Of a DNA stretch of 64,000 nt, positions 7,468 to 63,200 are shown piece by piece. The notes under the pieces are model-generated. The model saw only the letters and a list, made by a program, of their open reading frames with translations. It did not search any database and was not told the DNA's origin. Positions within the stretch are counted from its first letter, which is position 1, and each line of letters begins with the position of its first letter. A program made the position numbers and the translations under genes. Source of the DNA: Scenedesmus sp. ARA3 (Eukaryota > Chlorophyta > Chlorophyceae > Sphaeropleales > Scenedesmaceae); assembly GCA_004335835.1 (NCBI GenBank), contig RWJK01001970.1, positions 354 through 64,353 on the forward strand, read 5' to 3'.

Positions 7468-7626
7468 TGCGCCTCTTCCTTTGTGAGTGAGCGTGTGAGG
7501 AAGCTGGCTGACATGGGCAACAGCACCTGCAGGTTGGCTGGCTGCACATGCCTCACAAGGTGGTCCATCAGCTGGTAGAAGCGAGCAGGGTCCTGCTCAG
7601 TCAGGCTGCCCAGCAGCTGGTCGTCT

Positions 7627-7673
<47 letters not shown>

Positions 7674-7753
7674 CAAGGCGGTGTCAGCGGTTTTGTCATA
7701 GCAGGAGTCGTGCAGGGTCTTGCTCAGTGAGGCTGCCCAGCAGCTGGTCATCT

Positions 7754-7809
<56 letters not shown>

Positions 7810-10673: not shown

Positions 10674-10879
10674 GTCTGCAACGAGGTGTGCAACCTCCTC
10701 TGAGTTCGGCACAACGGCAGCACTGACCAGTGAGTTCTGGCACTTCGATAAAGCGAACAAAACCTGTCTCGGAGAGTCTTACAGACTGCAAAAAGTGCGT
10801 TCAACCCGAGCAAGACGTCAACCTCGCGCAAACAGACTATTCTGGCAGTGCATGCGTGGATCGCTCGGCTTGTAATACC

Positions 10880-11373: not shown

Positions 11374-14370
11374 TCATTCCTGAGCTGCAGCCTGCGCAGG
11401 CTCCTCAGTTGCTGCCGCTGCTGCTACATCATCCGCTGCTGCTGGCGCCTCGCCAGCTGCCGCTGCTGCTGGCTCCTCCTCGGCTGCTGCCTGTGCTGGG
11501 TCGTAGAGCTTGAAGTACTGCCTGAAGGCTTCAGCAGCCTCCGCCTCAGCCTCGGATGCTGCACACAGCACGAGCAACAGACAGCAAGTTAACAACAATA
11601 ACAGGCAGCACAAGGAAATTGCCTGCACGGCGGCCCACTCGGAGCATCGGGAGCGGTTGCTCTCCTGGTACAGCATTGCTTGATCGTGCGCAGCTGTGCA
11701 TGCATGTACGTATTTGTCTTTCGGACTTTTGCACACTCTGGTGACGTCAAAAGCACAACAGGGAGCACCCCACAGCCCTGTCACTAGAGTCTGTGCGTCT
11801 GCATGTGGGAGCAGCTGCCCAGTTGCTTTGCCTACCTTATGTTTCCTGCAACACTCTTTTGCACAAAACTGCAAGCTCAATTCGGCACCACCACCCAGAT
11901 AATTCACTTGAAATTCACCAGCTGCTTCACCTGCGGTGCAACCCTTCCAGTCGGCGCGCCCCGGCACGACAGCAAGCTGCGCCAGGATCTGCCGGCCCAG
12001 CTGCACCGGCACACACAACCTGCCACACAATTTGCCACAACACAGCCGCCAGCTAGCGTCTCATCACCTCAACCTACCTGCGGTGCATGCCTTCCAGTCG
12101 GCGCGCTCCGGCACGCCACCAAGCTGTGCCAGGATCCGCCTGCCCAGCTGCATGGGGGCACGCACCTTGCATCAAACCCAACCTGCACATTGCTTACCTG
12201 CAGTGCACTCCTTCCAATCAGCGCGCTCCGGCACGCCGGCAAGCTGCGCCAGGATCTGCCTGCCCAGCTGCATAGGGGCGCGCTGACCTGGCACCAGCGG
12301 CGCTGCCAGGCCGCTGCCGTCAAGCTACTTGCCTTTCTCAGTTTGTCTGGCAAGGCTTTGCTAAACAAACATGCAAACCGTATGCCATATGACACAGCCC
12401 CAATCAGCCACGCACGATTGACGCGAAAACAACACCTGCCGTACCTGCAGTGCACTCCTTCCAGTCAGCGCGCTCCGGCACGCCGGCCAGTTGTGCCAGG
12501 ATCTGCCGGCCCAGCTGCATAGGGGCACGCTGACCTGGCACCAGCGGCGCTGCCAGGCCGCTGCCATCAGGCAGCAATCCCAAAAAGTACTCAGCGTCGC
12601 CTACCAGCTCCCGCAGCGCGGCCCTGCAAGCACAGAAGTAATGCCATTGTGTTATAACTGTGACATCTTTGTGACAGCCAAGCCGCTGCCATCAGGAAGC
12701 AGCCCTGAGAAGTACTTTGCATCACCCACAAGCTCGCGCAGCGCGGCCCTGCAAGCACATAATACCAAATATGTTTGTGTGGCAAGGGCTTGATGATGAC
12801 TGACGACATGTTTCCCTAGCAGTACTCAGCATCACCCACAAGCGCGTGCAGCGCGGCCCTGCAAGCACAACAGACCAGATGTATGTGTGTGACGAAGGAT
12901 TGATACTGGCTAGCGACAGCAGTACCAGGAAGTACTGTGCATTACCGCCGCACAGCCCGGCAAGCACACCATCACATGCGCAATGCATCGTTCGTTTCAG
13001 AGCACAACCAAGCTTTGAGTGATGCGCTACGACTGGTAACAGGCTTTGCGCAGCAGTTCAGTACCACACAACATATTTCGGACACCCACATGAACACCAG
13101 CAGGCACCCACATGTCCATCTGGCCGTCCACAGCCGGCACAGCCGCCAGCGTCAGCCCAGCCTCACTCGCCAGCTCCGTGAAGGATGCTGATGGTTGCAA
13201 TCAGGCTGTAGGTGCGCTCTACCATGCTGCTAAACACAGCATTGGATGATGTCACAAAAGGATCGTTGCAGCGTCTAGATGCTCGGTCATCGCGCGAGCA
13301 GCAGGTTCAACAAAGTCAGAGTTAAAAGAACCAAATGAAACAGAAGTTGGCGCTCACATGTCCATCTGGCCGTCCATAGCTGGCACAGCAGCCAGCGTCA
13401 GCCCAGCCTCACTCGCCAGCTGCGTGAAGACCTCTGCTGCAGTCTCGGCCGCTGCCCTGCTGATGCCGATGGTGTTGAGGTGGCAGTGGTTGCCGCCCTT
13501 GGACCTGTTACAGCAGCAGTTGCAAAAGGTTCAACATAGAGTGTTTTCAGTGCAGCAGGTTGCATGCAGGCATGCCTGCTGATGACGACGGCGATCAGGT
13601 GGCAGTGGTTGCCGCCCTTGGACCTGCATGGCAGCAGCAGTTTGTCATGCACAGTAGGTGCGAATGGGTGATAGGCTGACAGCAGTCTCGCCTGCGCCCA
13701 GCCAATGCAGATGGTATGAAGCAAGCCCGCAGCCGCGCCTGCTGCTCTTTGCTGATGCGCTTCCTCCTCAGTCCTTCTGTCATGACCAGCTCCATACAGA
13801 TCCATACAGCCCATGCCTCAAGCAGAGAGCACCACATTTTGCTATGCCACACCTCTGACAATATGACTGCTACCAGCATTACGCAGTTGAACCTGCAGCA
13901 GCTCAGCAGCTCACCGCAGCTTCAGGTGCCGCTCAAAGCCCACCAGCCGCTGCCCAGCCGCAGCAGCACCGGTGCGCATGATAATGATAATGCTAGTAAT
14001 AATAATGATACTGGTAACGCTAATAACAATACTAACAGTAATAATAATTATCTAATGCATAATCAACAATTATTCAAAGCAGCTCACGGCAGCTTCAGGT
14101 GCCGCTCAAAGCCCACCAGCTGCTGCCCAGCCGCAGCAGCACCGGTGCGCATGATAATGATAATGCTAGTAATAATAATGATACTGGTAACGCTAATAAC
14201 AATACTAACAGTAATAATAATTATCTAATGCATAATCAACAATTATTCAAAGCAGCTCACGGCAGCTTCAGGTGCCGCTCAAAGCCCACCAGCTGCTGCC
14301 CGGCCGCCGCCGCAGCGGTGCGCACAACACAACAACAACCATGTGAATGATAAATTGACAATATAATAAC

Positions 14371-14436
<66 letters not shown>

Positions 14437-17400
14437 GCAGCTCACCGCAGCTTCAGGTGCCGCTCAAAGCCCACCAGCTGCTGCCCAGCCGCAGCAGCAG
14501 CGGTGCGCAGCGCGCTCAGGTAGCGCCCCGCCTCTGCTGCTGCTGCTGCCGGCAGAGCCGCCCAGGAGGGGTAGTGCTCGATGGGGATGACCAGGCAGTG
14601 CTGCGGGCTGATGGGGCCCTTGTCCAGTGCCAGGTACACCTCTTCACCCACGCTCGCCACCAAGTTGACGTCAACCTGCAGGAAAAAGTGCATTGCATTG
14701 TTGTTTGTTTTCATGTGAATGCGGATTCGTAAGCATGGCGGAGAACCAGCCAGGCGGGCGCAGCAGCGAGAGCAGCAGCGGAGGCATGTGAGTCAGCGGT
14801 AGAGATGACCAGGCAGTGCTGCGGGCTGGTGGGGCCCTTGTCCAGTGCCAGGTACACCTCTTCACCCACGCTGGCCACCAGGTTGACATCAACCTGCATG
14901 AAAAATGCATTGAGTTGTTGGCGTAAGATGTCATGTGCTGCTCCATTTGAGTTAACATTCAGCAAGAAGGTCACCACCCAGTTCAACGGCCGTTTAACTA
15001 CCAAAGCCTGCCCACCAGGTCGCTTGACCGCGCGCCAAGAAAGAGTCCTGCAAGATGACCACCGGCACAGCAGCCGCCAAAAGGCGCAATAACCTGAACT
15101 CAAACCCAGCCCACCCACCTGGTCACTTGACAGGCAGAACCACGAGCCCTTCCCGGGTTGAGGCAGAGGCTGCTGCTGCTGCTGCCACTGCTGGTATCCA
15201 TCCTAGCATAACATTTTGCAGACAACTGATGCGCCTGCACAAGCTGATTTGAGGCAAGCTGCCACGACCACACACTGACAAGATCTTTCTAGAGAGTCTT
15301 GCAACACTGGATCATCCAGCACAGCAGCCATCAGAACGAATTCAAACCCCAAACTCAAACCAAACTTGCCCAGCCCACCCACCTGGTCACTGGACAAGCA
15401 GAACCAGCAGCCCTCCGCTGGCTTACCGGGCTCTGGCAGCGGCTGCTGCTGCCGATGCCCATGCTTGAAACCATCCTAGCATGACATTTCGCAGACAATC
15501 CATGTGCCTGCACCAAATGATCTGGTGTAAGCTGCCACAACCGCACGCCAGAAAGAATGTCCTGCAAGATGGTCACCGGCACAGCAGCTGCCAGCATCAT
15601 CCTCCGACTCAAATTCAAATTTAAATGCAAAGTCATGCAGCCTAACCTACCTGGTCACTGGACAGGCAGAACCAGCAGCCCTCCACAGGCTTCCCGGGTT
15701 GTGGCAGAGGCTGCTGCTGCCGCTGCCGCTGCCGGTATCCATCCTAGCATAACACTTTGCAGACAACCGAGGTGCTGGCACCTGCTAATTTGAGGCAAAA
15801 GCTGCCACGACCACACACTGACAAGAGAGTCTTGCAACACTGGATCATCCAGCATACAGCAGCCATAAGAACGAATCTCAAACAAAAAAAATCCAATTCA
15901 ACTGGCCTGGCCTACCCACCTGGTCACTTGACAGGCAGAACCAGCAGCCCTCCACTGGCTTCCCGGGTTCAGGCAGCGGCTGCTGCTGCCGCTGCCCGTG
16001 CCGCTGCTGCTGCTGCCCGCGCCGCTCGCCGCGCCGCTGCTGCTGCTGCCCCTGCTGCCTGCCTTCCCTGTTATCCGCCGCATCTGCTGCATACATGCGC
16101 TCAAACTGCGGCGCCTGGCCCTCTGCCTTAGTCAGTGGCGTAGATGTGGCAATTGTGACTGGCCGGCCCATTAGCAGAGAGCCGTTGAGGGCGCAGGCTG
16201 CCGGCACTGCCCCGATCTCGGTAAACTGCACATGGCACCAGGGGTTGGCGCGGCCGGTGTCGGGCTGCGCACCGCGCCTGATGTCCTCCACCTGCACACG
16301 TGTAAGGACGGGTTTAGCGGACGAGTAAGAGAACACAGTTTAAGGGCAAGCCATGTTGAACTACAAAGGATGCCGGGTTGCGAGCCGCGCCTGATGTCCT
16401 CCACCTGCATGCGTAAAGGAGGCATGTGAAAAAGCAGCAGTGTATTGGTGAGCCAGGATGAAACAGTTTGCAACAGATGAGAGCATCAGCTGTCGGGCTG
16501 CGCTCCGCGCCTGATGTCCGCACTTGTGGTTAAAAGAAGAAGAACAATATTATACTCAATTCAAATTCTACTTGATTGTGCAACAGCCGCCGCACCTCTC
16601 CTGCTTGGGAGAAAAAGGTCGACAAGTCTTCGTATGTGGACTCAAAGGGCAGGTTGCGCACAAACACGCTGCGCGCGCTGTCCTTGAGCACGCCGGGCCG
16701 GCCCCATGGCTGGAAGGGCGTGGCGCCTTGGGGCACACCGCCCCGCATGCGCTTGGGCGGCATCCAGCGCCAGGTGCAGTGGTCAGGCAGGCCGCTGCCC
16801 GCAATGGCTGCTCCTTCCTGCAAGATAAAAGGCAACAAGACAGCTTCGATGTTACTGGCAATGTTTGGGATGCCTTGCATAGTGTCAGGGGCATCGTGGT
16901 GTGCAAATCAGGGGAGAAACTGGTTGAAAAAAGGCATGTAACTGGCATTGCAGGCATATGTCAATGCTGTGCATGCGCTTGGGCGGCATCCAGCGCAAAG
17001 TGCAGTGGTCAGGCAGGCCGCTGCCTGCAATGGCTGCCCCTTCCTGCAAGACATATGTACACCATGAGGTGCAAGTTAGTCATGTGGCAGGCATTGCAGT
17101 GCCAGGTGCAGTGGTGAGGCAAGCCGCTGCCTGCAATGGCTGCCCCTTCCTGCAAGCGTTCAGTTGAAGGACAGCTGGTATGTTGATAAGGGGTGTGCTA
17201 TTGAGGTAGAGGAGGGGCGGCATCCAGCGCCAGGTGCAGTGGTCCGGCAGGCCGCTGCCTGCAATGGCTGCTCCTTCCTGCAAGAGAAACTTGTGTAGCA
17301 CAAGGTGCATGTTTGGGCAATCAAGTAACACATGTTGCAGCGTCTTGGAAGAATGTCTTGGAATGCACTGGTCCGGCAGTGCGGCCGGCACAAGTAGACG

Positions 17401-18397
17401 ACCACAACAGCCAAGCGAATACCAGACTTCAAATATATGCTCTCTAGCAATTGCGCACCTCCTCGGCAGGGTGCTTCTTGCTGCCCTGCCCAGGCGCCTG
17501 ATATTCAGAAGCACCGCACCCGTCCGGCAGCGCCGCCAACACGCATACATCACAAAAACAACCAAGCGCATGCGAATACTCAATCACAACATACTCAACA
17601 GCGCAGACTTTGTGCACCTCCTCGGCAGGCCGCTTCTTGCTACCCTGCCCAGGCGCCTGGTACGGTGAAGCCCCGCACCCATCCGGCAGCGCCGCCAGCA
17701 TATGTTGACAACAACAGCAGCCGCATGCCGAATACAATACAAGTAAGCAAAAGCATTGACGTTGCGCACCTCCTCAGCGGGCCGCTTCTTGCTGCCCTGC
17801 CCAGGCGCTTGGTACGAAGCAGCACCGCAGCCCTCCGGCAGCACCACCAGCACAAGCCAGTCTACACAACAGCCAATGCATGCCATAAACAGAAAAAATG
17901 CGCACCTCCTCGGCAGGCCGCTTCTTGCTAACCTGCCCAGGGGCCTGGTAGGGAAAGGCCCCGCAGCCCTCCGGCAGCGCCGCCAGCACAAATAGATAAC
18001 AAACACAGCCATGCGCCAATAGAAAACCAACTCAAAACCATACATGCATACGCTGCGCACCCTTCGGCAGGCTGCTTCTTGCTGCCCTGCCCAGGGGCCT
18101 AGTAGAGTGAGGCCCCGCAGCCCTCCGGCAGCACCACCAGCACAAGTCTACAAAAACAGCCAATGCATGCCAACAACAGAAAACTGCGCACCTCCTCAGC
18201 AGGTCGCTTCTTGCTGCCCTGCCCAGGCGCCTGATATGGCGAAGCCCCGCAGCCGTCTGGCAGCGCCGCCAGCACATCCGTGCTCAGCGTGGACGCAGGC
18301 GGCAGCCCCAGCGCATGCAGGAACTTCTGCGCCGCCGCGCTTCCTGCAGCCTTTCCTGCAGCCGGCTTTCCTGCAGGCCCGCCGGGGCCCACCACGC

Positions 18398-18438
<41 letters not shown>

Positions 18439-20266
18439 GATCCCACCCCAATGCCGGCCCGCCCGGATCCCCCAGATCCTGCTGCTGCTGCAGCAGGTGC
18501 ATCGCCAGGGGTGGCGGCTGGGTATGGGGTTTTGCCAGTGACTGATCCAAGCCCCACAAAGCGAGTGGCTCTGGGCCCTGCACCCAGGTCTGGGTTGCTG
18601 TAGGGCTGCCGTGCATAGAACAGCGCCTGGCCGCCGGCGATGTGGTAGCGGGGGCGCGCAGTCAGCGCCACATCAGCAGCTACATTGCTGGCATACGCCG
18701 GCTGAAAGCCTGCACGCGAATTGATTGGAAAGCAGGACACAAGCAGGAGTGATGGCTAGTGAGTGCCTGTCTTAGTTTTTGTGACTGTGTTGAGAGGTGT
18801 CAGCGCTCTTTGCTGTGGACTATTGCCAGCAGCAGCGGAGGCACATGCACCCCTGCATAGAACAGCGCCTGGCCGCCGGCGATGTGGTAGCGCGGGCGTG
18901 CTGTGAGCGCCACATCAGCAGCTACATTGCTGGCATACGCGGGCTGGAAGCCTGCATGTAAAATGATGAAATGGTGAATTGATTTGATTCAAGGAGTGAA
19001 AGTGGACAAGAGCAGGATAGCAGCGGGTGACGGGTTTGAGGCTAATGCACCAGCATGGACGGAGTAGCTGCGGCTGGGCTGAATTTATGCAATCCTCTTT
19101 GTGTGGCGCTGATTGCCAGCAGCGGCGGAGGCGCATGCCCAGCGCCAACTCGTGCCAAACCCTAAACACATGCCTGATGCTGCAAGCCGCTGCTGCTGCT
19201 ACTGCTGCTGCTGCTACCAGCTGCACTGCAGCCATCGCTGCTGCGGTTACTCCTCCCTAGCGATGCAGCACTCAAACAAGTCATCAGCAAATGTTCAGCC
19301 AATCCAGACCTCTCTGTGCAAGCACACCGCTGCCTTTCATAAGGCATCCAACACGTGTGCACCCGCCCAACTATCTGCATGTCTTTCTGATGTCCACTCA
19401 TTCTTAGTTCACAAGCCACCCGACTCACCTTCAGGCGCAGCACTCCCAGCAGGCAGCTGCTGCAGCACGCCCGCAGGCCACTCGCATGTCAGCAGCATGT
19501 CAACTTCGCCAGGCAGCACCATCAGCTGATGCCGCAGCTTCGCAACGTCAGACTGGTTGTAGTGCCTGCAGGTGTTGAATGCAGGCGCCTTTCGCCTCGG
19601 CGCTGCTGATGCTGCTGCTGCTTCGCTGTCATCAGCTGCTGCCTCGCCACCTGCCGCTGCTGCTGAGTGTGGTGTGTCATCTGCTGGGACACCCTCGCCA
19701 TCGCCGTCACCAGCTGCAGCTGCTTCTGCTGCTTCTGCCTCCTCTGCTGCTGGTTCTGCTGCTGCATCTGCAGCTGCTGCTTCAGCTCCTGCAGCTGATT
19801 CGCCAGGCGGTGGTTTATTGGGTGCTGGCGGCTTTGCAAAGAACGCCTTGGAATGGAACGTTCCATCCAGGAACGCAACGTTTAGGGACTCCAGCTGCGT
19901 CACGCCTGACCTGCCCAGGTACTGCAGGGACCTGCTGCCAGCTGGTGCTGCTTTGAGAGCTGCCAGGGTGGCAGCAGAGCCCTTGCCTGCAAGCAGCAGC
20001 AGCAGCAGCAGCAGCAGCAAGCAGGGATGGGCATTGAGGATGTGTTCAGTCTCTCCCTTGGTCAGCAGCACCCAGCTGTTGTGCAACAACAGCCATTGGT
20101 GAGTGCAGCTTTGCAGCATGCTCTGAACATCTGCTTTCACCGAGAGTAAGGTGTTCAGAGCTACACCTTCAACCGCTCCTTTCAACTGCTTTGCATGCCA
20201 CAGCAGTCGCAGGCAGCAGGCGCCTCTGTTGGACAGTGCAACAGGCACTACCCTTGATGGGACGGC

Positions 20267-20297
<31 letters not shown>

Positions 20298-20759
20298 CAG
20301 CTGCCACTTTTGCTCACCGTAGCCGCCTAGAAAGTAGGTTTTGACAGGTAGCTGTGCGCTGCCATCCACATACGGCCGCAGCTGCTCTGGAATGTCGCCA
20401 CCATCTCCTGCAAGCAACAGCAGCAACAGCATGCCCATGTAAGCTGCATGCAGTTACAGAACACGTACTACTATAGCTAGCGCTGCTGGAAGTATGAACA
20501 GCACCTCATGCGTAGGTGCAGTAGCAGGAACCCTGCAGTGCTGTGACACTATGCACACAAGTGATGCTGCTGGTGGAAGTGCAGACACGTGAACAGCAAC
20601 GCAACAATGCCAGCACCTACCTCCTGGCTCAAAGAACTGGCCCACACACAGCAGCAGGTCAAACGGTCCGTTCTTGCTGTTGACTGCTGCTACTTTCTTG
20701 AACAAGACATTGAAGCCACCCAGGCAGTCTCCAGCCATCAAGACTTTCACAGCAGACAT
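11374..20759 (-). CDS. CWF19L1-like: CWF19-like protein (Drn1 family) with RRM
   Basis: Ten exons close in frame to 879 aa: 20759-20621, 20407-20318, 19986-19429, 18709-18192, 16817-16596, 16291-15920, 14675-14446, 13504-13358, 12623-12445, 11558-11374. The N-terminal metallophosphoesterase-like domain begins MSAVKVLMAGDCLGG and contains FDLLLCVGQFF, TYFLGGYG, VDMLLTCEWP, ARPRYHIAGG and ATRFVGLGSV. An RRM follows (RSVFVRNLPFESTYEDLSTF, then VEDIRRG...CHVQF). CwfJ domain 1 begins WFCLSSDQVDVNLVASVGEE with the HIT-like histidines in PQHCLVIPIEHYPSW. CwfJ domain 2 has GGNHCHLN, ELVGDAEYFLGLLPDG and EAFRQYFKLYDP. Relatives (human CWF19L1, yeast Drn1, fission yeast Cwf19) act on spliceosomes or with Dbr1 on intron lariats. 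As far as I recall, human CWF19L1 lacks an RRM. Seven of the nine introns contain exon echoes. Confidence 0.94.
11930..12550 (-). repeat. four copies of an exon end (CWF19-like exon 9)
   Basis: The segment encoding QLGRQILAQLAGVPERADW plus the following donor occurs near 12445-12545 (used copy) and again near 12198-12290, 12075-12155 and 11930-12005. The echoes have drifted by point changes and lie in the downstream intron. Confidence 0.85.
12580..12965 (-). repeat. four copies of an exon start (CWF19-like exon 9)
   Basis: The acceptor TTGCAG and the exon start encoding AALRELVGDAEYF are present at 12623 (used) and repeated upstream in the gene near 12751, 12869 and 12960. Each is preceded by a related intron tail. 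Confidence 0.82.
13100..13625 (-). repeat. duplicated start and end of CWF19-like exon 8
   Basis: The exon start encoding SKGGNHCHLNTIGIS is repeated near 13623-13580, upstream of the used copy at 13504. The exon end encoding ASEAGLTLAAVPAVDGQMD (used copy ends 13358) is repeated near 13190-13108, downstream. Both echoes sit in the introns that touch exon 8. Confidence 0.8.
13905..14520 (-). repeat. four copies of CWF19-like exon 7 end with AT-rich spacers
   Basis: The segment encoding GQQLVGFERHLKLR plus a GTGAG donor is present at ~14520-14446 (used) and again near 14330-14265, 14155-14089 and 13975-13913. Two consecutive units (about 13913-14088 and 14089-14264) are almost identical over 176 bp, including an AT-rich intron stretch (gataatgataatgctagtaa and following). 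This makes them the youngest duplication seen here. Confidence 0.9.
14366..14434. repeat. (AAT)n microsatellite
   Basis: About 22 uninterrupted AAT units immediately inside intron 7 of the CWF19-like gene, adjacent to the used donor. Confidence 0.97.
14590..14897 (-). repeat. two copies of CWF19-like exon 7 start
   Basis: The acceptor and VDVNLVASVGEEVYLALDKG are encoded at 14675 (used) and again at about 14895-14800, upstream in the gene. The echo is nearly identical over ~95 bp and then diverges. Confidence 0.88.
15118..16010 (-). repeat. four copies of CWF19-like exon 6 end
   Basis: The segment encoding LPEPGKPVEGCWFCLSSDQ plus donor is used at ~16000-15920. Diverged repeats lie near 15735-15650, 15460-15382 and 15200-15118. 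The intron parts also repeat (gtatccatcctagcataaca and flanks), showing that the unit spans exon and intron. Confidence 0.87.
16250..16530 (-). repeat. three copies of CWF19-like exon 6 start
   Basis: The acceptor and start of exon 6 (VEDIRRGAQPD) are used at 16291. Echoes read VEDIRRGSQP near 16405 and a shorter RTSGAERSPTAD version (frame-shifted) near 16520. Confidence 0.75.
16755..17290 (-). repeat. four copies of CWF19-like exon 5 start
   Basis: TTGCAG followed by EGAAIAGSGLPDHCTWRWMP is used at 16817 and repeated near 17048, 17155 and 17282. The echoes keep the acceptor and 40-70 bp of exon. Confidence 0.88.
17450..18275 (-). repeat. six-copy array of CWF19-like exon 4 end
   Basis: The ~90-bp segment encoding LAALPDGCGASPYQAPGQGS plus KKRPAEE and the donor is used at 18275-18192. 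Five diverged copies lie at about 18146-18054, 17990-17900, 17852-17764, 17702-17612 and 17543-17454, spaced 132-158 bp apart. The copy at 18146-18054 has an in-frame stop (ASLY then TAG). The echoes lack an AG acceptor directly in front, so they would not form standalone exons. Confidence 0.93.
18604..18952 (-). repeat. two copies of CWF19-like exon 4 start
   Basis: GFQPAYASNVAADVALTARP plus RYHIAGGQALFYA is encoded at 18709 (used) and again at ~18951-18855, with its own TGCAG acceptor. Similarity ends after the duplicated ~100 bp. Confidence 0.9.
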
Positions 20760-34395: not shown

Positions 34396-34457
<62 letters not shown>

Positions 34458-36104: not shown

Positions 36105-36136
<32 letters not shown>

Positions 36137-37598: not shown

Positions 37599-37639
<41 letters not shown>

Positions 37640-37808
37640 TTCAATAGGTGTGCTGCAAGTGGTACATGGCTGATGCAGCATGGCCTGAAGCTACCTGTCA
37701 GATATTCCCTGGTGTGGCGGACTGCAGTATTCAGTAACAGCGTCACGCCAGTGCAGTGCGCGGCCCCATGTACGCTGCTGACCAGCATGTTCATTGGAGC
37801 TTCCTGCG

Positions 37809-37840
<32 letters not shown>

Positions 37841-40600
37841 AGATCAAGGTGACAGACAGGGGCATTGAGGTGGGCGCAGGCGTGACACTCACACGCCTGC
37901 AGGACCTGCTGCTGCAGCAAGCCGCCAAGCAGCCGCCACACAAAACCCGCGGCTTTGCAGCCACGGCTGAGCAGCTGCGGTGGTTTGCGGGCCGGCAGAT
38001 CCGCAACACGGGCACGCTGGGTGGTAACATTGCGACAGCGAGCCCGATCAGTGACCTGAACCCGCTGTGGATGGCGTTTGGGGCAGTTTTCAGGCTGGCG
38101 AGCCAAGGGCGGCGGGTGCGGGAGGTACCAGCATCAAAGTTCTTCCTGGGATACAGGTGGGAAGTTTACTAAAAAGTTTATCTGTGAGCAGTGTGAAGTT
38201 TTTGTTCCCTGTGGATGGCGTTTGGGGCGGTGTTCAGGCTGGCGAGCCAGGGGCGGCGGGTGCGGGAGGTGCCAGCATCAAAGTTCTTCCTGGGATACAG
38301 GAGGGAAGTTGACTCGGAAGTTCAGTTTTGAGCAGTGTGGAGTTATGTTTACTGTGGGTGGCCTTTGGGGGCGTGTCCAGGCTGGCGATTCAGGGGCGGC
38401 GGGTGCGGGAAGTTCCGGCACCTTCCTTGGCTACAGGTGAGAAGTTTACTAGGAAGTACAGCTGCAGGCAGTGTGAAGTTTGATTCTCTATGGATGCCCT
38501 TTGGGGCGGTGTTCAGGCTGGCGAGCCAGGGGCGGCGGGTGCGGGAAGTTCCGGCGTCAAAGTTCTTCCTGGGCTACAGGTGAGAAGTTGACGAAGAAGT
38601 TCAGCTGCCAGCAGTGTGAAGTTTGACTCTCTGTGGATGCCCTTTGGGGCGGTGTTCAGGCTGGCGAGTCAGGGGCGGCGGGTGCGGGAAGTTGCGGCAT
38701 CAAAGTTCTTCCTGGGCTACAGGTGAAAAGTTGACGAAGAAGTTCAGCTGCCAGCAGTGAGAAGTTACTTCCCTGTGGATGCCCTTTGGGGCGGTGTTCA
38801 GGCTGGCGAGTAAGGGGCGGCGGGTGCGGGAAGTTATGGCATCAAAGTTCTTCCTGGGCTACAGGTGAAAAGTTGACTAGGAAGTTCAGCTGCGGGCAGT
38901 GAGAATTTACTTCCCTGTGGATGGCGTCTGAGGTGGTGTCCAGGCTGGCGAGTCAGGGGCGGCGGGTGCGGGAAGTTATGGCAACAAAGTGTATCCTCCT
39001 GGGCTGCAGGTAGGAAGTTTAGTAAGAAGTCGTACCACATCCTCAAGAATGCAAAATAATTACATCAGGCCCCCTTGGTCTAACATTCTTCCCTACTATG
39101 TTGCTGCTGCTGCCCGCAGGCAGGTGGACATGGCGCCCTGGGAGCTGCTGCTGTCGGTGTGCATCCCATCCACAGAGCACGAAAACATACGTGCAGCAGG
39201 GCTTTGCAGCTCAACAGTATTCCCTGTTGTTTGCTGCTGCTTACCGCCCGCAGGCAGGTGGACATGGCTCCATGGGAGCTGCTGCTACCGGTGCACATCT
39301 TGCCACAAATCTTGGAAAACGTCCTGGCAGTGCTCTGCGGCTCAATAGTCTTTGCTTGTTATCTGCTGCTCCTGCCGCAGGCAGGTAGACATGGCGCCGT
39401 GGGAGCTGCTGCTGTCGGTGCGCATCCCATTCACGGGGCCCACCGAGTTTGCAAAAGAGTTCAAGCAGGCGCCGCGCAGGGACGACGACATCGCTATCGT
39501 CAATGCAGGTGAGAATTGTAACAACAAAGTGACAAAGTGACAGTCAAAGTAACAGACAAGATCCCAGGCATATAATTCAACAGTTCGTACAGGAGTAAGC
39601 AGCAGATTCCGCCAAGGAGTTCAAGCGGGTGCCACGCAGGGACGACGACATTGCCATCGTCAATGCAGGTGACTGGATTACGTGGCAAATTGGCAATTCT
39701 ATTTTGGCAGAAAAAGTAACACATGAGAGGCAGGCATGAGGAAAATTCAAATGACAGCGCAATTGCTGGCTGAGGAACTGCTGCTGCGCGGCGTGTTCCT
39801 TTCCCTGCAATCTTGCAATGTGCAGCTGTTGCTCCTATTTGAATAGGTCACCTGTTTGACTGGTGCGCCTGCAGGCATGCGTGTGCGGCTGGAGCAGCGG
39901 CCTGCTGCACTTTCTATGCCTAATCGTGTGAACTGCAGTTGCTGCTCAGGATCACATGTCCACCTGCTGCTCGTTTTCACGCCTGCAGGCATGCGTGTGC
40001 GGCTGGAGCAGCGGCCTGCTGCTGAGGGCAGCGAGGAGCAGGCCTGGCTGGTGGCAGATGTGGGCATTGCATACGGCGGCGTGGCTCCCAAGACCATCAT
40101 GGCAGAAAAGGTAAAAGATTGCGGCTGTGAGCTGTCAGCTGGTGGACATGGAAATGTGGGCATTGCGTATGGCGGTGTTGCGCCCAAGACCATCATGGCA
40201 GACAGAAAAGGTGCGGCATAACTATAAATAGACCATCGCCAAAACGCTTCTCTCTTGAAACACATGCTTTGTGGCGGATGTGGGCATCGCATACGGCGGC
40301 GTGGCTCCCAAGACCGTCATGGCAGAAAAGGTGTGCGGCTGCGGCTGTGAGCTGTCAGCTATTGGGCAGTGAAAGTCATGTTTTGTGTACCAGTGTGATG
40401 TGGGCACTGCATACGGCGGCGTGGCTGCCAACACCATCATGGCTGAAAAGGTGTGGTAGCAGCTATGAGGCGGTAAGCTGTTGGGATGTGGGTTAAACTA
40501 ATTTAATGTGGGCATTGCTTATGGCGCGTGGCTTTCGAGACAATGGTGGTGCAGGGGGACGCTGGATGCCATGCTGGTTGCGCTGCGTAAGGACGTCAAC
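33440..40600 (+). CDS. XDH: xanthine dehydrogenase, N-terminal half only
   Basis: Purine catabolism: hypoxanthine and xanthine to urate. Nine exons join in frame for 570 codons: 33440-33569, 34135-34299, 35764-35953, 36177-36661, 36976-37073, 37492-37569, 37843-38156, 39381-39508, 39989-40110. The start is [12 protein letters not shown]. Both 2Fe-2S clusters are present ([17 protein letters not shown] with CRCTGYRPI across an intron), as is the FAD domain ([43 protein letters not shown]) and the flavoprotein C-terminal domain ([17 protein letters not shown]). A later fragment at 40559-40599 ([14 protein letters not shown]) fits the next family segment, but its upstream join is missing. The FAD linker has a long Ala/Ser-rich, Cys-containing insertion (exon 36177-36661). 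The whole molybdopterin domain is absent. Sequence breaks into a palindromic GC block and an assembly gap, so this is a truncated gene or an assembly break. Confidence 0.95.
34265..34915 (+). repeat. array of XDH exon 2 ends separated by CAG tracts
   Basis: [11 protein letters not shown] plus a GGTGAG or GGTGCG donor is used at 34299. It recurs near 34343-34370, 34472-34503, 34572-34603, 34697-34729 and 34880-34911, with partial copies near 34623 and 34802. CAG tracts (notably 34398-34455) separate the copies. Confidence 0.92.
35188..35266. repeat. AT-rich inverted repeat in XDH intron
   Basis: The arm ccaaaaactttttttat (35188-35204) pairs with aataaaaaaagttttgg (35250-35265). The following 140 bp remain strongly AT-rich, unlike the GC-rich exon echoes around it. 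It could be a miniature foldback element. Confidence 0.5.
35493..35885 (+). repeat. two copies of XDH exon 3 start
   Basis: GCATCGGCAGTGTGCGTGA and about 110 bp (peptide [20 protein letters not shown], then CGFCTPGF) occur at 35493 and at the used position 35764. The upstream echo includes the cluster II cysteines and a TGCAG acceptor, but diverges after about 110 bp. Confidence 0.9.
36715..36805. repeat. short GCATATGCA-type repeats
   Basis: Several imperfect copies of gcagcatatgca within an XDH intron, partly palindromic. Confidence 0.7.
36855..37310 (+). repeat. echoes of both ends of XDH exon 5
   Basis: The exon start (G-P-x-C-T-W-Y-R-P, LxQLLT) is used at 36976 and echoed upstream at ~36858-36910. 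The exon end ([11 protein letters not shown] plus GTGAG) is used at 37073 and echoed downstream at ~37155-37194 and 37270-37309. Confidence 0.9.
38055..39010 (+). repeat. seven-copy array of XDH exon 7 end
   Basis: The segment for [19 protein letters not shown] plus [14 protein letters not shown] and its GGTG(A/G)GAAG donor is used at 38156. Diverged copies follow at about 38205-38302, 38345-38438, 38485-38581, 38625-38722, 38770-38865 and 38910-39010, spaced 140-147 bp apart. The first ~50 bp of intron (gaagttgacgaagaagttca and following) repeats as well. Several echoes have lost the frame or the exact donor. Confidence 0.95.
39100..39670 (+). repeat. echoes of both ends of XDH exon 8
   Basis: The exon start ([13 protein letters not shown] with CCGCAG acceptor) is used at 39381 and echoed upstream at ~39119-39165 and 39254-39285. 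The exon end ([20 protein letters not shown] plus GGTGA) is used at 39508 and echoed downstream at ~39606-39670. Confidence 0.92.
39870..40530 (+). repeat. echoes of both ends of XDH exon 9
   Basis: The exon start ([12 protein letters not shown]) is used at 39989 and echoed upstream at ~39874-39908. The exon end ([18 protein letters not shown] plus donor) is used at 40110 and echoed downstream at ~40153-40206, 40276-40330, 40396-40450 and, weakly, 40507-40530. Confidence 0.93.
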
Positions 40601-40973: not shown

Positions 40974-41335
40974 NNNNNNNNNNNNNNNNNNNNNNNNNNN
41001 NNNNNNNNNNNNNNNNNNNNNNNNNNNNNNNNNNNNNNNNNNNNNNNNNNNNNNNNNNNNNNNNNNNNNNNNNNNNNNNNNNNNNNNNNNNNNNNNNNNN
41101 NNNNNNNNNNNNNNNNNNNNNNNNNNNNNNNNNNNNNNNNNNNNNNNNNNNNNNNNNNNNNNNNNNNNNNNNNNNNNNNNNNNNNNNNNNNNNNNNNNNN
41201 NNNNNNNNNNNNNNNNNNNNNNNNNNNNNNNNNNNNNNNNNNNNNNNNNNNNNNNNNNNNNNNNNNNNNNNNNNNNNNNNNNNNNNNNNNNNNNNNNNNN
41301 NNNNNNNNNNNNNNNNNNNNNNNNNNNNNNNNNNN
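40974..41335. other. assembly gap (362 N)
   Basis: A run of undetermined bases. It falls exactly where the XDH gene stops and the palindromic block begins, suggesting that assembly failed in a repeat. Confidence 1.
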
Positions 41336-56942: not shown

Positions 56943-58597
56943 ATGGCGAATCCTACGTGGATGTGGCTGGTTCTGGCCCTCGTGATTGCACAGGTAGCGT
57001 GACGTCATGCAACGTATGTGTTTAATCTCAATGAGCGTCGCACGGGCGCATCAACGTATCGACTCGTCACTCTATTGCCAGCTATTGCTGCTGCTGCTGT
57101 TCCCTCTTCTTCCCGCCTGCTTCCCTGTCTCCTGCAGGCTAGCTGTTTCCTGTCTGACGTGCGACCCGCTGTCATCGGAGCAGACGGCCTTGATTTTACG
57201 CAGGTGATTGCAGTGCAGCGTGGCTGTAGCAGGCTTGCAGAGCAGCTGCCTGGCTAGGGCACTAGTGTGTGGCGAGGGATTGGTTGGTCACAACTGTTTT
57301 GGCTGCAACGGCAGCAGAGCCTGTGAACACAAGCTTTTTGATCGTCAGTGTAGACAACAAGAACATATTGTCAGTTCTCATACATGTGACCAGCAGGGTG
57401 CAGCACACTCAGTAACCACGCAGTGTTGCCAGGCCAGCGTCACCTGCCAGCAGTGATGCTGCGCAATGCAGCAGTGCTGTGAAGCAGAAGGCCAGCTGGC
57501 ACCAGGTCTGCAGGAGCAAGCGTGCAAGTCCAACATTATTGTAGTAGTACTAATAGCAGGGCACTTGGATTACATAATTGTCACGTGATTCAGTCTGTTA
57601 CTGCCCTTCTGCATGCTTTCCTTGCATGCTCAGCACGTCTAGCATGTTGAGTGCGATCAGCACCCACGCCTTCCTCACACGCCACCAGGATGTAACCCCA
57701 AAACACCACCCCAAACATGACACTCCCTTCCACCTCTGTCACCCCATGACTTGCCAGGTCAACTATGTGCAAGATGAATTGGGCCAGGCCGGCCAAGGCA
57801 TGCGTATCGCCGTCCTGGACGATGGCGTAAACTGGCAGCGCTGATTCCTGTGTATGTACCTGCCCAAACACCACCCCTTCACTCTGCTTCCCCAGGTCAG
57901 TTACGTGCAGAACGAATTGGGCTTGGCCGGCCAAGGCATGCGTATTGCCATCCTGGACGATGGCGTAACCAGCGGCGCTGATGCCTGTGTGTGTCCTGCC
58001 CAAACACCACCCCTTCCACTCTGCTTCCCCAGGTCAACTATGTGCAGAACGAGCTGGGCTTGGCCGGTCAAGGCATGCGTATCGCCATCCTGGACGATGG
58101 CGTGGACTGGCGGCGCAGCGCAAACTGGGGGCGCTGCAGCACACTGGCCAGCCCCAGCAGCAGCAGCAGCAGCAGCAGCTGCAGGGTGGTGGCCTCGTAC
58201 AACCCCTTCTCCGAGACAGGCGAACAGTGAGCTTGCTGTGGATTGATACGCTTGATGCAGCACAGCAGCACGATGGATTTGCCAACGTGGCGCATGGCGT
58301 AGAAAAGTAATGCAGGCTTACTTGCAGCTGGAAGGCGCTGCAGCAGTGCAGAGCACCATGCGGGGCACTGGCTGTTGTGCATTGCTGCGAGGTTGCTGCG
58401 GTGTGGCGTGTCTAGCTGTCCAGGACTGCACAAGTGCATTGAGCACCCGTGACCAGGCTCTCCTTTGCCATGCCAAAACGTGTGCTGCATTGTTACGGTG
58501 CCTGAACAGCATCATGCACAGCATCAGGTTCCCTTGCAACTGCTGCTACTGTTCGACGATGCGCACTGTGCTCCTCTTGCTGCTGGTGTTGTGCACC

Positions 58598-58644
<47 letters not shown>

Positions 58645-60183
58645 CTTTTGCAGGTGGTGCTGGGCAGTCGTGATGCACATGGCACCCACGTGGCTGGTGA
58701 GCGTTGAAAGCTGCTGTCTTTTATCACCGCTTCTGCACAAGCATGTCTGATTTGCACATGCAGCTCGTGATCTTCTTGCTCTGCTGCTGCAAGTTGCTGG
58801 AGAGCGTTGCTGGTGTGCCCAGCAGCTGCTGCCTGTCATGCAGCAGCTGCTGCTGCACTAGTATGTCTGACTTGCACATGCAGCTGACGTTTTTGCTCGG
58901 CTGCTGCTAGTTCAGCATCATGCAGTTGGCTTGTGAGCAGGGAAGAGGACATCCATGTGAGCTGCTCTTTGCGGGTGCTCCGCAGGCATTGCTGCTGGGT
59001 CGTTTCCTTACAAGCTGATGGATGCCAACAACACACCCTTTGACTACCAGCGAGGTGTGGCATACAACGGTGAGGCCCTGCCTTGATGCGCAGCCCAGCT
59101 CAGCTGCTGCTGCGAGGCTGTACGGCCTTGGTGCGCTGGCCAGATCAGCTGCTGCTGCATAGCTGCAGTTCCTGTGCAGAGGCTTGCACGCCAGTTGGGC
59201 AGCAAGCACTGCACAGCGTGTACTGCTGATAGTACTGCAGCATGCAACAGCCAGCTGCTGCATACGGAAGTTGCTAGTGCCTCACGTGCTGACCATGTTG
59301 GTTCTACTGTGTGCTGTTCCTGCGCGTCTGCACTGCAGCGTTCATAGGGGATTACAAGGTCATACCAGGATTCTATGTGAGTAGAACCAGCATAGCATGT
59401 GCCTCTGTTGTGCCTGTGCCGCTGTTGCCTTGCTTGGCAAGCAGCTGCTGCCTCTGCCATCTTGCATGCTGCACAGCAACACCAAGCGCTGCTGTTGGCC
59501 ATGACACTGGCGTGTGTGTGTTCACACACACATTTGCTTTGGCTGCTAGAGCATACATTCAGTGTGACAGCCGCTGCATGCAACGCAGCGTGGCCTGCTA
59601 TTTGCACCTGCCTGCTGCCGATATACACGTTGACGCCCTTGTTTGCTGTCCTTCATTTTTCGCTTGCTGTGCATGCCCTCTAGGCCAACACGGCAACATA
59701 TGCAGCCATACAAGCTGTCTGACGTGTGCTGCATACACAGCAGCAGAGCTTGGTAGCGGCACCTTGCAGATGGCTGCTTGTAGCTGACGTGCGTGCCTGC
59801 TGCATGTTTTCTCCTACTCCTGCCAGGCCAACACGGCAACATATGAAGCCGTCCGCACAGCCATCAGCAACTGCATCACCCGGGCCACCCAGGACGGCAT
59901 GGACGTCCTAAACCTCAGCTACAGCCAGTACAGCCTAAACCCCAGCCCAGAAGATGCAGCCGCACTCGCTGCTGCAACAAAAGCCGGCGTGCTGGCGGCT
60001 GCTGCTGCAGGCAATGCTGGCCCTCAGGCTGGGCTTTTTGGCACTGCTTATCCCAGCTGGGATGCTGGCGTGCTGTCTGTGGCAATGCTTGGCAATACGG
60101 TGACAATGGGGGCGCTATTGAGCCTGAGCAGCAGCATAGCAAGCGGCCCAAATGGCATGAAGACCAGCCAGCTTGGTGAGTTG

Positions 60184-60218
<35 letters not shown>

Positions 60219-63200
60219 GGTTTGTGATCTTGCTGACATAACGCGTCGTGTTACTGTGGTGACGTGACGTCGGCTGACAGGTTCTGAGCAGGAGCGCATG
60301 CCGCCTGTGTGGTCCTACTTGTGCAACGACGGCTTCTGTGCATTGAACGTGCTCCGCCCTGGGTTGCTGCTGCGTGACGCCTCACTCATTCTCTGCTGCA
60401 TGCCTGTCTCCATGTCTGAGCAGCGGCCGTGCAGCGCGCCGACACGATGCACTCGGTGTGGGCTGCCAGTGCCGAGCAGCTAACCCATGTTATCCATGCG
60501 ATCTTGCTTAAAGGCTGCTACGCTGCACATGAAATATACCGTTCTGGGGTTATTTGTCCCGCCTGTCTGATGCTTCAGCTGTTCTTTGCTGCTCGTTATC
60601 CACATGCTTGCTCGCAGCGGCCGTGCAGCGCGCAGACACAATGCGCTCCCTGTGCTGCCCTCGCTGCAACGCGCTGGGCCTGCCTCTACGCCTCGCATAT
60701 GGTCGCTTCAGCAGCACATGCTACGACGTAGAGATGATAACTGGCAATCCACGGGCAGCAGCGCTGCTGATTGAAGTGCCCGCTAGCTGTGGCGTCTTCC
60801 AGCCGACCAGCGACTGGTACACTATGCTTCAAATTTATGACCTGCGGCCCAGGCTGGTGCTGTTGTATTTGCCAGCATATCAAGATGATGCGTACCTCGG
60901 ATCTGCAAACTACGAGATTAATAATGCAAGTGTTCCTGCATTCTGGCTAGCCAGCAGTGACGGCACTGCGCTGGCGGCTGCACTAGCGGCTGCAGCAGAT
61001 GCTCGAGCAGCAGCGAATGCAACGCTGCGCCTGACTGGCATTGTCAATGTGGGGCTGCCTGCGGCGCAAGGAGTGGTGATGCAGCCGTTGCTCATGAGCA
61101 GCAGGGGGCCCGGTGAGTGAAGTATAGCAGGGAAATGATTTGCACCTTGTCTCGCATCGTTGTGCACCTTGTGTTGAGAGTGCCTGAGTGAAAGAAGGCA
61201 CTGAGTGCAGTTGGTGCTGGAGGCGTGCTGGCTTAGGTGTGCTGGTGTGTGCAAGTTGTCAGCTGCAGCCTGCTTTGCAAATACGTGCACTGATTGTAAC
61301 ACAGCCCATTAGGGGCCCACTCCCTCGAGTGCTGCAGCCATGCCCATGCTGTATTGCTTGGCGTATAGGCCTATGCTGTGTGATTGCGCTGCCAACACTT
61401 ATGAACAACAAGCACGTGTTGCAAGACCTGCCTGAACATCTGTGCTGCTGCTGTGCTGCGCTCACAGGGCCTGAACCTGCAGGTGAAGCCGGACATTGCT
61501 GCGCCTGGCTTCATGCTGTACAGCAGCACGCCAGCCAACAACTACCAGACGCTTAGCGGCACCTCAATGTGAGATGCATGTGGAAAAAATTGCGCTGCAC
61601 AGCATGCACAGCATGCACAGCATACACATTGTTGCACACATGTTGCACACATGTTGCAGACTGAACAAGCAGTCTTCACATGCAGCGATGCACTCGTGAG
61701 CGCAGCGCACATGGCAAGAGGCCGCCAGCGGCTGTGTCACTCGGCTCTTACATGGTCCTGCACTTGTTGCAGAGGGGGCTCATGATGTGCAGCCTGCAGC
61801 CTTCAACTTGCTGCCTGCTGCTACATGTTTCCTGCAGGGCGGCACCCTACATCTCTGGTGTGCTGGCACTCTGGAAGCAGAGCAGGCATGGATATTTCAC
61901 TCCCAAGGAAGGCTGGCCAGCTGCTGCTGCAGCAGCAATTAAAAACACCGCCAAACCAGCACCGTACAGCCAGCCAGGCATCATCAGTAGCCTGATGTGG
62001 CCTCCTGCCTTTGTTGGTGCCGGCACAGTGCAAGCTGCTGCAGCCATCACAAATTGCGTCAGCATCAGCCCACCGGAGCTACTGCTGCAATCCGGGCTAC
62101 CCATTCAAAATGTTGTTGTAACACTTACTAACAACTGTGTGAAGCGTCGCGGCGCTGAGCTGGTGCTGTCTCACAAGCCGGCGTTTGCGCTTGATATTGT
62201 TGGGGACTGGAGCCGCAGGTCTTATGACCCGGGTAACCCAGGAGCTGTGCCAACTGCAGCTGTTACCTTTTCAAAAAGTGACGTGACACTGGATGTGGGA
62301 CAGTCACAGACGTTTGAGGTGAGCGACAACAGTGGCGCCTGGTTGGCTTGCTGCCATGGACGCCGCTTTGCGGCGCATGCAGTGCAACATATGGCGCATT
62401 TCTGCAGTCCTGGGTTGTACTGCAGTATGCTGCTGCTGCTGCTGCTGCTCACAGATGCACTCCGCTTGCACCTGTGCTCATTTCACCACTCCGGCTGCCC
62501 CCACTGCTCTGCAGGTGACCTTCAGCGTGCCACGGGCCCTGCAGGCTGGCCCCTACATCTACAGCGGCTACATAACCCTGAACCCTAGGCTGTATGACCT
62601 GAAGGCAGGCTCTGTGCCCCTGTCTATACCCTACCAAGGCTGCAGCAGAAACTACAGCGACCCAAAAAGCGTCAGGCTCATACCACCACTGAATGAAGAT
62701 CTCAAGCCTGTTGCAGGAGCACTCTGTGCAGGCTACTTAGACGAAGGCTTCATTATTTGCAGCAATGATTTGGCTGCTCCAGGCGTAGTCAAAGTTCCCT
62801 GGTCAAACATATCGAATCCAGATCAGAATGTGGGTTTAGGGTTCACGCATGTGTTGGCGCGGCCGCTACAGCAGTTGATTGTTGAGGTTTATGGAGTAGG
62901 CAGGCGCAACGGCACACTGTTAGGTTCTCAGAGCTTCGGTCCATGTCAGAAGACCTTAGCCAATCAGCTGTCACTTTTACCAATGTACAGCTCTATGACA
63001 AGCTTTGCTTATTCCTCCAAGTTCTCAGCGTGCGGAGCATTCTTTGATGGCAGCTACACACCAGTAGGCAGCAATGGCACCACAGCGCAGTTGCAGATAG
63101 GCAGGCAGTACAGATTCAAGTTGGTGCTTGTGGCGCCAGTGGCAGCAGCAGATGCTGCTGCAGGGCAGCAGCAGGGCGGGCAGCTACGTGTAGATATCAG

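What the first reader, a model, noticed from the sequence alone, without database searches (positions are those of the whole stretch)
7600..60655. Genome-wide 'exon echo' system: tandem copies of splice junctions fill introns of unrelated genes
In nine genes of different function I count about thirty exon ends or starts that are tandemly repeated 2-7 times together with the adjoining splice site and some intron. The geometry is strict. Exon-end (donor) echoes lie only downstream of their exon and exon-start (acceptor) echoes only upstream, all inside the touching intron. In every model I could close, the frame is restored only by the first donor and last acceptor, so the longest possible intron is removed. 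Echoes are diverged, truncated or stop-containing, so they are not assembly copies. Known ideas (intron gain by tandem duplication of AGGT sites, exon duplication) do not describe recurrent echoing at most junctions of a gene. It may be an ongoing mechanism of intron growth, or a store of alternative exons.
Basis: partly seen in the sequence, partly recalled or inferred. Interest (0 to 1): 0.95.

Follow-up and report, generated by a model that had tools for sequence, protein, structure and literature searches.

The report
Exon-edge copies filling algal introns
In a green alga close to Tetradesmus obliquus, many genes carry rows of decayed copies of exon ends inside the touching intron, spaced about 130 bases apart, and the copies match the exon but mostly not the intron next to it.

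Summary
In two window genes (CWF19L1-like, xanthine dehydrogenase) and two chaperonin genes elsewhere in the genome, exons were placed by spliced alignment to homologous proteins. 48 of 76 exon edges carry copies (108), in sense and in the touching intron. These genes were chosen because copies were visible; in random stretches about 9% of predicted edges carry one, and one chaperonin gene has none of 22. Plain junction-spanning tandem duplication with neutral decay fails: copies at least 93% identical on the exon side share the intron flank in only 8 of 31 cases. Homology usually stops at the splice site; the spacers tested are unique. Changes specific to the used exon are 35 synonymous to 2 replacement; changes private to copies are 89 to 115. 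So the outermost splice sites are the coding ones and copies decay. A T. obliquus gene record contains one CCT5 copy as an extra exon, sharing three replacement changes with a copy here. Best reading: recurrent, partly tandem duplications of exon edges with unrelated filler, tolerated because splicing uses the outermost sites, sometimes multiplied as whole units. Why breaks fall at splice sites is unexplained. Closest known: a potato junction-crossing duplication.

The parts
11374..20759 (-). CWF19L1-like gene, 10 exons: 20621-20759, 20318-20407, 19429-19986, 18192-18709, 16596-16817, 15920-16291, 14446-14675, 13358-13504, 12445-12623, 11374-11558
   Evidence: Spliced alignment of T. obliquus protein P0001; last exon extended to the stop by the gene finder. 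Two zero-length 'exons' of the raw alignment were merged into introns 5 and 6.
18851..18956 (-). acceptor copy of exon 4 start (intron 3)
   Evidence: 6 synonymous, 1 replacement difference
17449..18144 (-). five donor copies of exon 4 end (intron 4)
16971..17289 (-). three acceptor copies of exon 5 start (intron 4)
16371..16526 (-). two acceptor copies of exon 6 start (intron 5)
15109..15734 (-). three donor copies of exon 6 end (intron 6)
14769..14905 (-). acceptor copy of exon 7 start (intron 6)
13906..14324 (-). three donor copies of exon 7 end (intron 7), with AT-rich spacers
13575..13637 (-). acceptor copy of exon 8 start (intron 7)
13103..13183 (-). donor copy of exon 8 end (intron 8)
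12677..12869 (-). two acceptor copies of exon 9 start (intron 8)
11919..12325 (-). three donor copies of exon 9 end (intron 9)
33440..40110 (+). xanthine dehydrogenase gene, N-terminal 9 exons: 33440-33569, 34135-34299, 35764-35953, 36177-36661, 36976-37073, 37492-37569, 37843-38156, 39381-39508, 39989-40110; no convincing further exon was placed before or after the run of N near 41 kb
   Evidence: spliced alignment of T. obliquus P0024
34340..34920 (+). five donor copies of exon 2 end (intron 2), separated by CAG runs
35489..35746 (+). two acceptor copies of exon 3 start (intron 2): one 93% identical with 8 synonymous and 0 replacement differences, one decayed
36857..36910 (+). acceptor copy of exon 5 start (intron 4)
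37153..37310 (+). two donor copies of exon 5 end (intron 5), full unit incl. intron part
38209..39021 (+). six donor copies of exon 7 end (intron 7), unit about 143 bp
39107..39299 (+). two acceptor copies of exon 8 start (intron 7)
39611..39672 (+). donor copy of exon 8 end (intron 8)
39866..39908 (+). acceptor copy of exon 9 start (intron 8), 34 exon bases and 9 intron bases identical, flanks unrelated
31172..31949 (-). six donor copies downstream of the exon ending at 31999 in the 31-33 kb gene
   Evidence: exon from the gene finder
57754..57978 (+). two acceptor copies upstream of the exon starting at 58033 in the subtilisin-like gene
   Evidence: exon from the gene finder

Best explanation
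Each array grows from recurrent local duplication events that copy an exon edge: a block running from 30-130 bp inside the exon to a few bases past the splice site is doubled, and the two blocks become separated by several tens to about 110 bp of sequence unrelated to the flanking intron (a 'partly tandem' duplication with filler, as break repair with offset nicks is thought to produce). Events across an exon edge survive because the spliceosome keeps using the copy joined to the exon body (first donor, last acceptor), so the protein does not change and the other copy lies in the intron. Copies then lose coding constraint. Some whole units (block plus spacer) multiply further by unequal exchange or slippage, giving regular arrays such as XDH intron 7 and CCT5 intron 11. 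The excess of synonymous differences is explained by different functional alleles of the exon passing through the locus in a diverse species. Shown: arrays, geometry, block boundaries, spacing, constraint on the used exon, decay of copies, and lack of other genome matches for the spacers tested. Inferred: the repair mechanism, filler origin, allele replacement, splicing itself (no transcripts were seen). Not explained: why one break lies at the splice site and why some genes have many arrays and others none.
For: Fresh cases: TCP1 intron 6 donor copy, 68 exon bases and 5 intron bases identical, then unrelated, blocks about 100 bp apart; XDH intron 8 acceptor copy, 34 exon and 9 intron bases identical, flanks unrelated. 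Of 31 copies with at least 93% exon-edge identity (not independent; several share an array) 8 have an alignable intron flank; a simulated tandem duplication of that age gives nearly all. Identity profile falls from about 0.9 to near background past +5 and before -5 (20 donor, 24 acceptor arrays). Exon-side block ends are often shared inside arrays, e.g. 85,85,85,86,84 and 64,64,64, but not always, e.g. 128,99,97. Two spacer queries and three whole-intron queries hit nothing outside their own locus. Spacing: 87 of 102 gaps at 90-190 bp, 13 at 210-270; folded mean 134, sd 22. Whole-unit multiplication: CCT5 intron 11 spacing 107-108, CWF19L1 intron 7 units 98% alike. Used exon 35 synonymous, 2 replacement changes; copy-private 89:115. 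Arrays fill about 59% of intron length in the four genes (my sums over rows); published mean intron length is 462 bp in T. obliquus against 230, 302 and 284 in three other Sphaeropleales (passages of PMC5966456).
Against: No direct evidence of breaks or filler; no second genome at DNA level. The synonymous excess (159:71 where 101 synonymous are expected) needs the added assumption of deep allelic diversity (ps about 0.2), which I could not measure; third-rank copies alone show no excess (48:49). 26 of 97 copies do have an alignable flank, so plain tandem duplication happens too. A break preference at splice sites has no known cause; acceptor boundaries are compatible with homology ending exactly at the exon. 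Strong gene-to-gene differences (0 of 22 to 16 of 18 edges) are not predicted. Synonymous distance does not rise with distance from the junction, as serial budding would predict.
Confidence: 0.4

Rival explanations
1. Ordinary junction-spanning tandem duplications (unit about 90-190 bp, intron part included) anywhere in genes; intron parts and purely intronic arrays decay, while the exon blocks are refreshed by gene conversion from the conserved exon, so only exon blocks stay visible.
For: Full-unit arrays exist: XDH introns 5 and 7, CCT5 intron 11, TCP1 introns 2 and 8. Spacing within arrays is more alike than between arrays (within variance 222, total 505, none of 5000 shuffles as low). Explains shared exon-side ends and the visible edge bias without a special break site. 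A 114-bp identical pair with period 108 lies just behind a predicted exon in L009 without touching it.
Against: Conversion must stop exactly at the ends of blocks as short as 40-70 bp; blocks with 0 differences lie beside unrelated flanks. In the 18 arrays that I set apart as having no alignable flanks the spacing is not more alike than chance (P 0.16). Young intronic arrays should be about as frequent as young edge arrays; only 2 intronic candidates were found in the four genes.
Confidence: 0.3
2. The copies come from diverged homologues (other haplotype, strain or species): one end of an exon break copies the edge and part of the foreign intron and is then end-joined, pushing the old edge into the intron.
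For: Divergence of copy and exon is synonymous-rich in all four genes (ps 0.20-0.21, pn 0.033-0.039 for the most similar copy); copy-copy pairs 165:156, pn/ps 0.31 instead of about 1. Explains the rarity of intronic arrays, because only exons offer homology.
Against: Alignable flanks at ps 0.2-0.4 in several arrays (XDH i7 donor, TCP1 i2 acceptor, CCT5 i6 acceptor) show that foreign introns of that age should still align; most do not. The stretches searched gave no second copy at another locus.
Confidence: 0.15
3. Copies are functional alternative exon ends kept by selection on their protein sequence and splice sites.
For: GT or GC kept in 48 of 49 scored donor copies and AG in 41 of 46 acceptor copies (copies whose alignment does not cross the junction are not in these counts); pn/ps 0.17 for the most similar copies; T. 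obliquus P0145 carries one copy as 15 extra residues.
Against: 44 frame-shifting gaps (some lie in the intron end of the alignment) and 3 stops in 97 copies; private changes nearer to neutral (89:115). With function and time enough to erase flanks, synonymous sites should differ, yet several arrays have a copy with none (TCP1 i6 donor, TCP1 i9 donor, XDH i8 acceptor, CWF19L1 i7 donor, CCT5 i11 donor). P0147, P0183 and P0217 lack the extra residues.
Confidence: 0.07
4. Neutral tandem duplication alone: the strict geometry is only what purifying selection leaves, since introns are short compared with the unit.
For: Selection does explain why no copies lie inside exons and why the outer sites are used. 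Edge placements are common by geometry (0.35-0.56 for units of 100-180 bp).
Against: 48 edge arrays against 2 intronic candidates where about 60 intronic are expected (naive probability 2e-18; with a twofold detection handicap 2e-11; original intron lengths are estimated); missing flank homology; synonymous excess P 8e-15.
Confidence: 0.03
5. Assembly artefact: pieces of reads or haplotypes wrongly joined at conserved exons.
For: Spacing is near short-read length; flanks differ while exons match; strong differences between genes.
Against: The 15 extra residues of T. obliquus P0145 (DNMVRVEQYAMRAFA) share three replacement changes with one copy of the array here (DNMVRVEQYAMQAFA; the exon reads DKVVGVEQYAMRAFA); P0145 is 97% identical to the gene here and comes from UniRef, strain and assembly not shown. 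Up to six copies at one edge would need as many haplotypes. Only this one array has such outside support.
Confidence: 0.05

Closest known systems
Potato RdRp case: tandem duplication crossing an intron-exon boundary (PMC4974935, abstract and passages seen)
   Same: A duplicated block crosses an exon-intron boundary.
   Different: One event in one gene that made a new intron, with the intronic segment duplicated too. Here many edges of one gene, up to six copies, existing introns grow, intron segment mostly not shared.
Intron gain by duplication of an AGGT-containing exon segment (Rogers; Hellsten et al., as described in passages of PMC4974935)
   Same: Tandem duplication supplies extra splice sites and the peptide is unchanged.
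   Different: There the new intron consists of exon sequence. Here introns pre-exist and spacers are unrelated.
Partly tandem duplications with filler, patch-mediated break repair in rice (recalled: Vaughn and Bennetzen 2014; not seen here)
   Same: Two direct copies separated by filler DNA.
   Different: No tie to splice sites and no recurrent arrays that I recall.
Introner elements in algae (recalled: Huff et al. 2016; not seen here)
   Same: Intron growth or gain in green algae with a regular size.
   Different: Introners are multi-copy families; the spacers tested here have no other match.
Minisatellite or satellite arrays (recalled)
   Same: Unequal exchange multiplies units.
   Different: The repeat is a gene's own exon edge and spacers are often unrelated.

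Membership tests
AGGT-type intron gain | intron made of a duplicated exon segment, downstream-exon sequence after the new donor | tested here: not met
   In the copies printed the sequence after the copied donor does not match an exon; edge queries never matched inside other exons
Junction-crossing tandem duplication (potato type) | block contains both exon edge and splice site | tested here: met
Junction-crossing tandem duplication (potato type) | intron part of the unit is duplicated as well | tested here: not met
   8 of 31 young copies, 26 of 97 overall have an alignable flank: met only in a minority
Introner or other mobile element | spacer belongs to a family with many copies in the genome | tested here: not met
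   5 queries, no hit outside their own locus; the search skips simple repeats and very common words
Alternative or mutually exclusive exons | inner copies present in mature mRNA | not testable with these tools
   no transcripts held; one copy is in a T. obliquus protein record
Alternative or mutually exclusive exons | copy kept by coding selection now | tested here: inconclusive
   private changes 89:115 (ratio per site about 0.5), 3 stops, 44 frame-shifting gaps in 97 copies
Partly tandem duplication by patch-type repair | identical direct blocks separated by unrelated filler in a fresh event | tested here: met
   TCP1 intron 6, XDH intron 8
Partly tandem duplication by patch-type repair | empty pre-event site in a sister genome | not testable with these tools
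   no DNA of a relative was found in the collections on hand

The most novel reading that the evidence does not exclude
Splice junctions in this alga are preferred sites of a recurrent insertion process: unique DNA of several tens to about 110 bp is inserted at the splice site with a 30-130 bp duplication of the neighbouring exon edge, building repeat-spacer arrays (repeat = exon edge, spacer = unique) that make introns grow in steps of about 130 bp, possibly because exon-bound RNA hybrids or splicing-linked structures set the nick positions.
Probability: 0.25. Interest if true: 0.9.

Novelty: new variant of a known kind. Interest (0 to 1): 0.72.

Why it matters
How introns lengthen, apart from transposon insertion, is poorly known. 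Here the growth steps are visible and anchored to a conserved reference (the exon). It is a natural test of how a spliceosome chooses among near-identical splice sites and keeps the outermost pair. It also warns annotators: copies look like exons and enter gene models (the T. obliquus CCT5 record).

Tried and rejected
An unsupervised gene finder collapsed into tiny exons and was retuned; it still calls copies as exons, so it was used for junction statistics only in random stretches and two further genes and for two window genes. Spliced alignment first failed in traceback for CWF19L1 and was fixed; it made two zero-length exons at AG/GT sites of copies, which I merged. The first change counts used wrong frames for TCP1 exons 5-10; corrected, where copies with score below 28, with more than four alignment blocks, TCP1 intron 4 donor and 5 bases at the block end were dropped (97 of 108 copies kept). 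The TCP1 exon 4/5 boundary is not closed in frame. The 440-pair control for the copy search has a long tail (95% at 18, 99% at 47, maximum 72; I think from neighbouring introns of one exon), so a few of the 48 edges may be false. In the random stretches some of the 26 edges with copies may be coding repeats (L014, L015). Age rising with distance from the junction was looked for and not found for synonymous sites (rank 1 to 4: 0.244, 0.249, 0.204, 0.264). A telomere-like motif is enriched in the introns of the four genes but tied to nothing. Ten paper searches listed no title that describes this pattern; they cover only open PMC papers, and I read only passages of three papers.
Full report
WHERE IT IS. 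The window lies in an 87.27-Mb assembly of 1567 contigs. The best-matching proteins with a named green-algal source are Tetradesmus obliquus: CWF19L1-like P0001 (91% identity over 78% of the query), xanthine dehydrogenase P0024-P0026 (94-95%), and for a gene elsewhere in the genome CCT5 P0145 (97%; one tick protein scored higher in bits at 66% identity). So it is a green alga of or near T. obliquus; no tool names the species.

CHECK. A local self-comparison finds 21 clusters of direct repeats in the window and no inverted one; in 17 random stretches (155.7 kb) 26 clusters cover 7.6% of the sequence, with one inverted match (clusters summed from its rows). Spliced alignment of the T. obliquus proteins places 10 CWF19L1 and 9 XDH exons. 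The repeat pairs in their introns belong to arrays that touch an exon edge, apart from a weak 45-bp pair in CWF19L1 intron 3. To go beyond the window I took two chaperonin genes, CCT5 (L023) and TCP1 (L022), found through Pfam PF00118. I picked them because their match rows already hinted at copies, so they are not a random sample. CCT5 exons agree between the T. obliquus and Raphidocelis proteins except one extra exon in the former; TCP1 exons rest on T-complex protein 1 alpha from a solved structure. In the four genes 48 of 76 edges carry 108 copies: 11 of 18, 8 of 16, 13 of 24 and 16 of 18.

HOW COMMON. In random stretches 26 of 286 edges of predicted exons have a copy on the intron side and 13 of 286 on the far side of the exon; 6 of the 16 stretches with testable edges have none. 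Two more chaperonin genes, taken because their rows showed no overlap, have 0 of 22 (L024) and 3 of 24 (L025). The phenomenon is widespread but very uneven between genes, and neither pair of chaperonin genes is a random draw.

GEOMETRY. Searching each edge against its whole locus on both strands gave 99 of 124 matches in the touching intron, 22 in the other intron beside the same exon, 3 outside the modelled gene (two of them behind the truncated XDH model), none in exons and none antisense. Only 2 candidate arrays inside introns were found against 48 at edges. Given unit lengths and estimated original intron lengths about 43% of tolerated placements would be at edges, so about 60 intronic arrays are expected; even with a twofold detection handicap the chance is about 2e-11. 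Selection against exon damage therefore explains why copies are not in exons, but not why intron interiors are spared.

WHAT IS COPIED. Anchored at the junction, copies match the true exon at about 0.9 and fall to near background beyond +5 at donors and before -5 at acceptors (20 donor and 24 acceptor arrays). For 31 copies with exon-edge identity of at least 0.93 only 8 have an alignable intron flank, while simulated tandem duplicates of that divergence nearly all would. The flanks tested are not a mobile family: two spacer and three intron queries found no other locus. Exon-side ends are often shared within an array, not always. Fresh examples have identical blocks of 68 exon plus 5 intron bases (TCP1 intron 6) and 34 plus 9 (XDH intron 8) with unrelated sequence on both sides. 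A minority of arrays repeat whole units including the spacer (XDH introns 5 and 7, CCT5 intron 11, TCP1 introns 2 and 8). In copies without alignable flanks the matching run past the junction averages 5.1 bases at donors (3.5 for random donors, P 3e-5) and 4.8 at acceptors (4.4 for random acceptors, P 0.08).

SPACING. Of 102 spacings between neighbouring copies 87 are 90-190 bp and 13 are 210-270 bp, about twice as long; folded mean 134, sd 22. Repeat clusters in random stretches that are not clearly at a predicted edge have similar periods, e.g. 108, 113, 118, 149 (read from the rows), so the size may belong to a general duplication process. Spacings are more alike within arrays overall, but not in the arrays without alignable flanks (P 0.16).

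WHICH COPY IS USED. In arrays with at least two copies, changes that set the true exon apart from all copies are 35 synonymous and 2 replacement; changes private to one copy are 89 and 115 (the first two genes alone gave 14:0 and 33:58, the latter with 2 stops). The copy joined to the exon body is the coding one and the others have lost most constraint. This does not depend on any transcript and supports first donor and last acceptor use.

A SURPRISE. The difference between true exon and copy is much richer in synonymous changes than expected for a copy that was free from birth: 159:71 for the most similar copy of 46 arrays, 101 synonymous expected, P 8e-15, alike in all four genes. Third-rank copies alone show no excess (48:49, P 0.17). 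Copy-copy pairs give 165:156, pn/ps 0.31. Synonymous differences show no direction in base composition (66 against 63). So copies and exon diverged largely while both were coding. I read this as replacement of exon alleles within a diverse species, or as copying from a diverged homologue; I could not test it without a second genome.

REAL OR ARTEFACT. T. obliquus P0145 contains 15 extra residues, DNMVRVEQYAMRAFA, where the exon end here reads DKVVGVEQYAMRAFA; one of the six copies of the CCT5 array here reads DNMVRVEQYAMQAFA, sharing three replacement changes. At least this array exists in another record of the species, predates the split of the two and has entered its gene model. No such outside support is at hand for the other arrays. 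Published tables give T. obliquus UTEX 393 a mean intron length of 462 bp against 230 in Raphidocelis, 302 in Monoraphidium and 284 in Chromochloris (passages of PMC5966456). In the four genes arrays fill 16.3 of 27.7 kb of intron (my sums over the rows).

READING. Best: recurrent partly tandem duplication of exon edges with unrelated filler, tolerated by splicing, decaying afterwards and sometimes multiplied as whole units (0.4). Main rival: ordinary tandem duplication with refreshment of exon blocks by gene conversion (0.3). Foreign or allelic templates (0.15), functional alternative exons (0.07), assembly error (0.05) and pure neutral duplication (0.03) follow. The closest printed case, of which I saw abstract and passages, is a single potato gene (PMC4974935).

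Noticed in passing
L022, L023 introns; window spacers near 31.4-32.0 kb: Telomere-like CCCTAAA motifs are enriched in introns of the four genes (0.72 per kb against 0.03 in random stretches); similar CCCCAAAACCCC stretches are seen by eye in the 31 kb spacers.
   Followed up: partly
L023:6539-6718: A stretch of about 180 bp in CCT5 intron 9 matches itself on the minus strand at 79% identity, an inverted repeat.
   Followed up: no
window 40900-41400: Run of N; the rest of XDH was not convincingly placed after it, so the scaffold may be broken or misjoined there.
   Followed up: no
window, whole: Very many CAG/CTG runs in exons and introns; some array spacers consist of them (XDH intron 2).
   Followed up: no
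window 16405 and 14894: AG/GT sites at acceptor copies look like recursive splice points: the alignment inserted zero-length exons there.
   Followed up: no
T. obliquus P0145; Scenedesmus sp. P0217: CCT5 protein records contain a copy as an exon (P0145) or a non-homologous stretch where exon 7 ends and copies lie (P0217).
   Followed up: partly
L024 against L022: Chaperonin genes of one family differ from 0 of 22 to 16 of 18 edges with copies; no cause was found.
   Followed up: no
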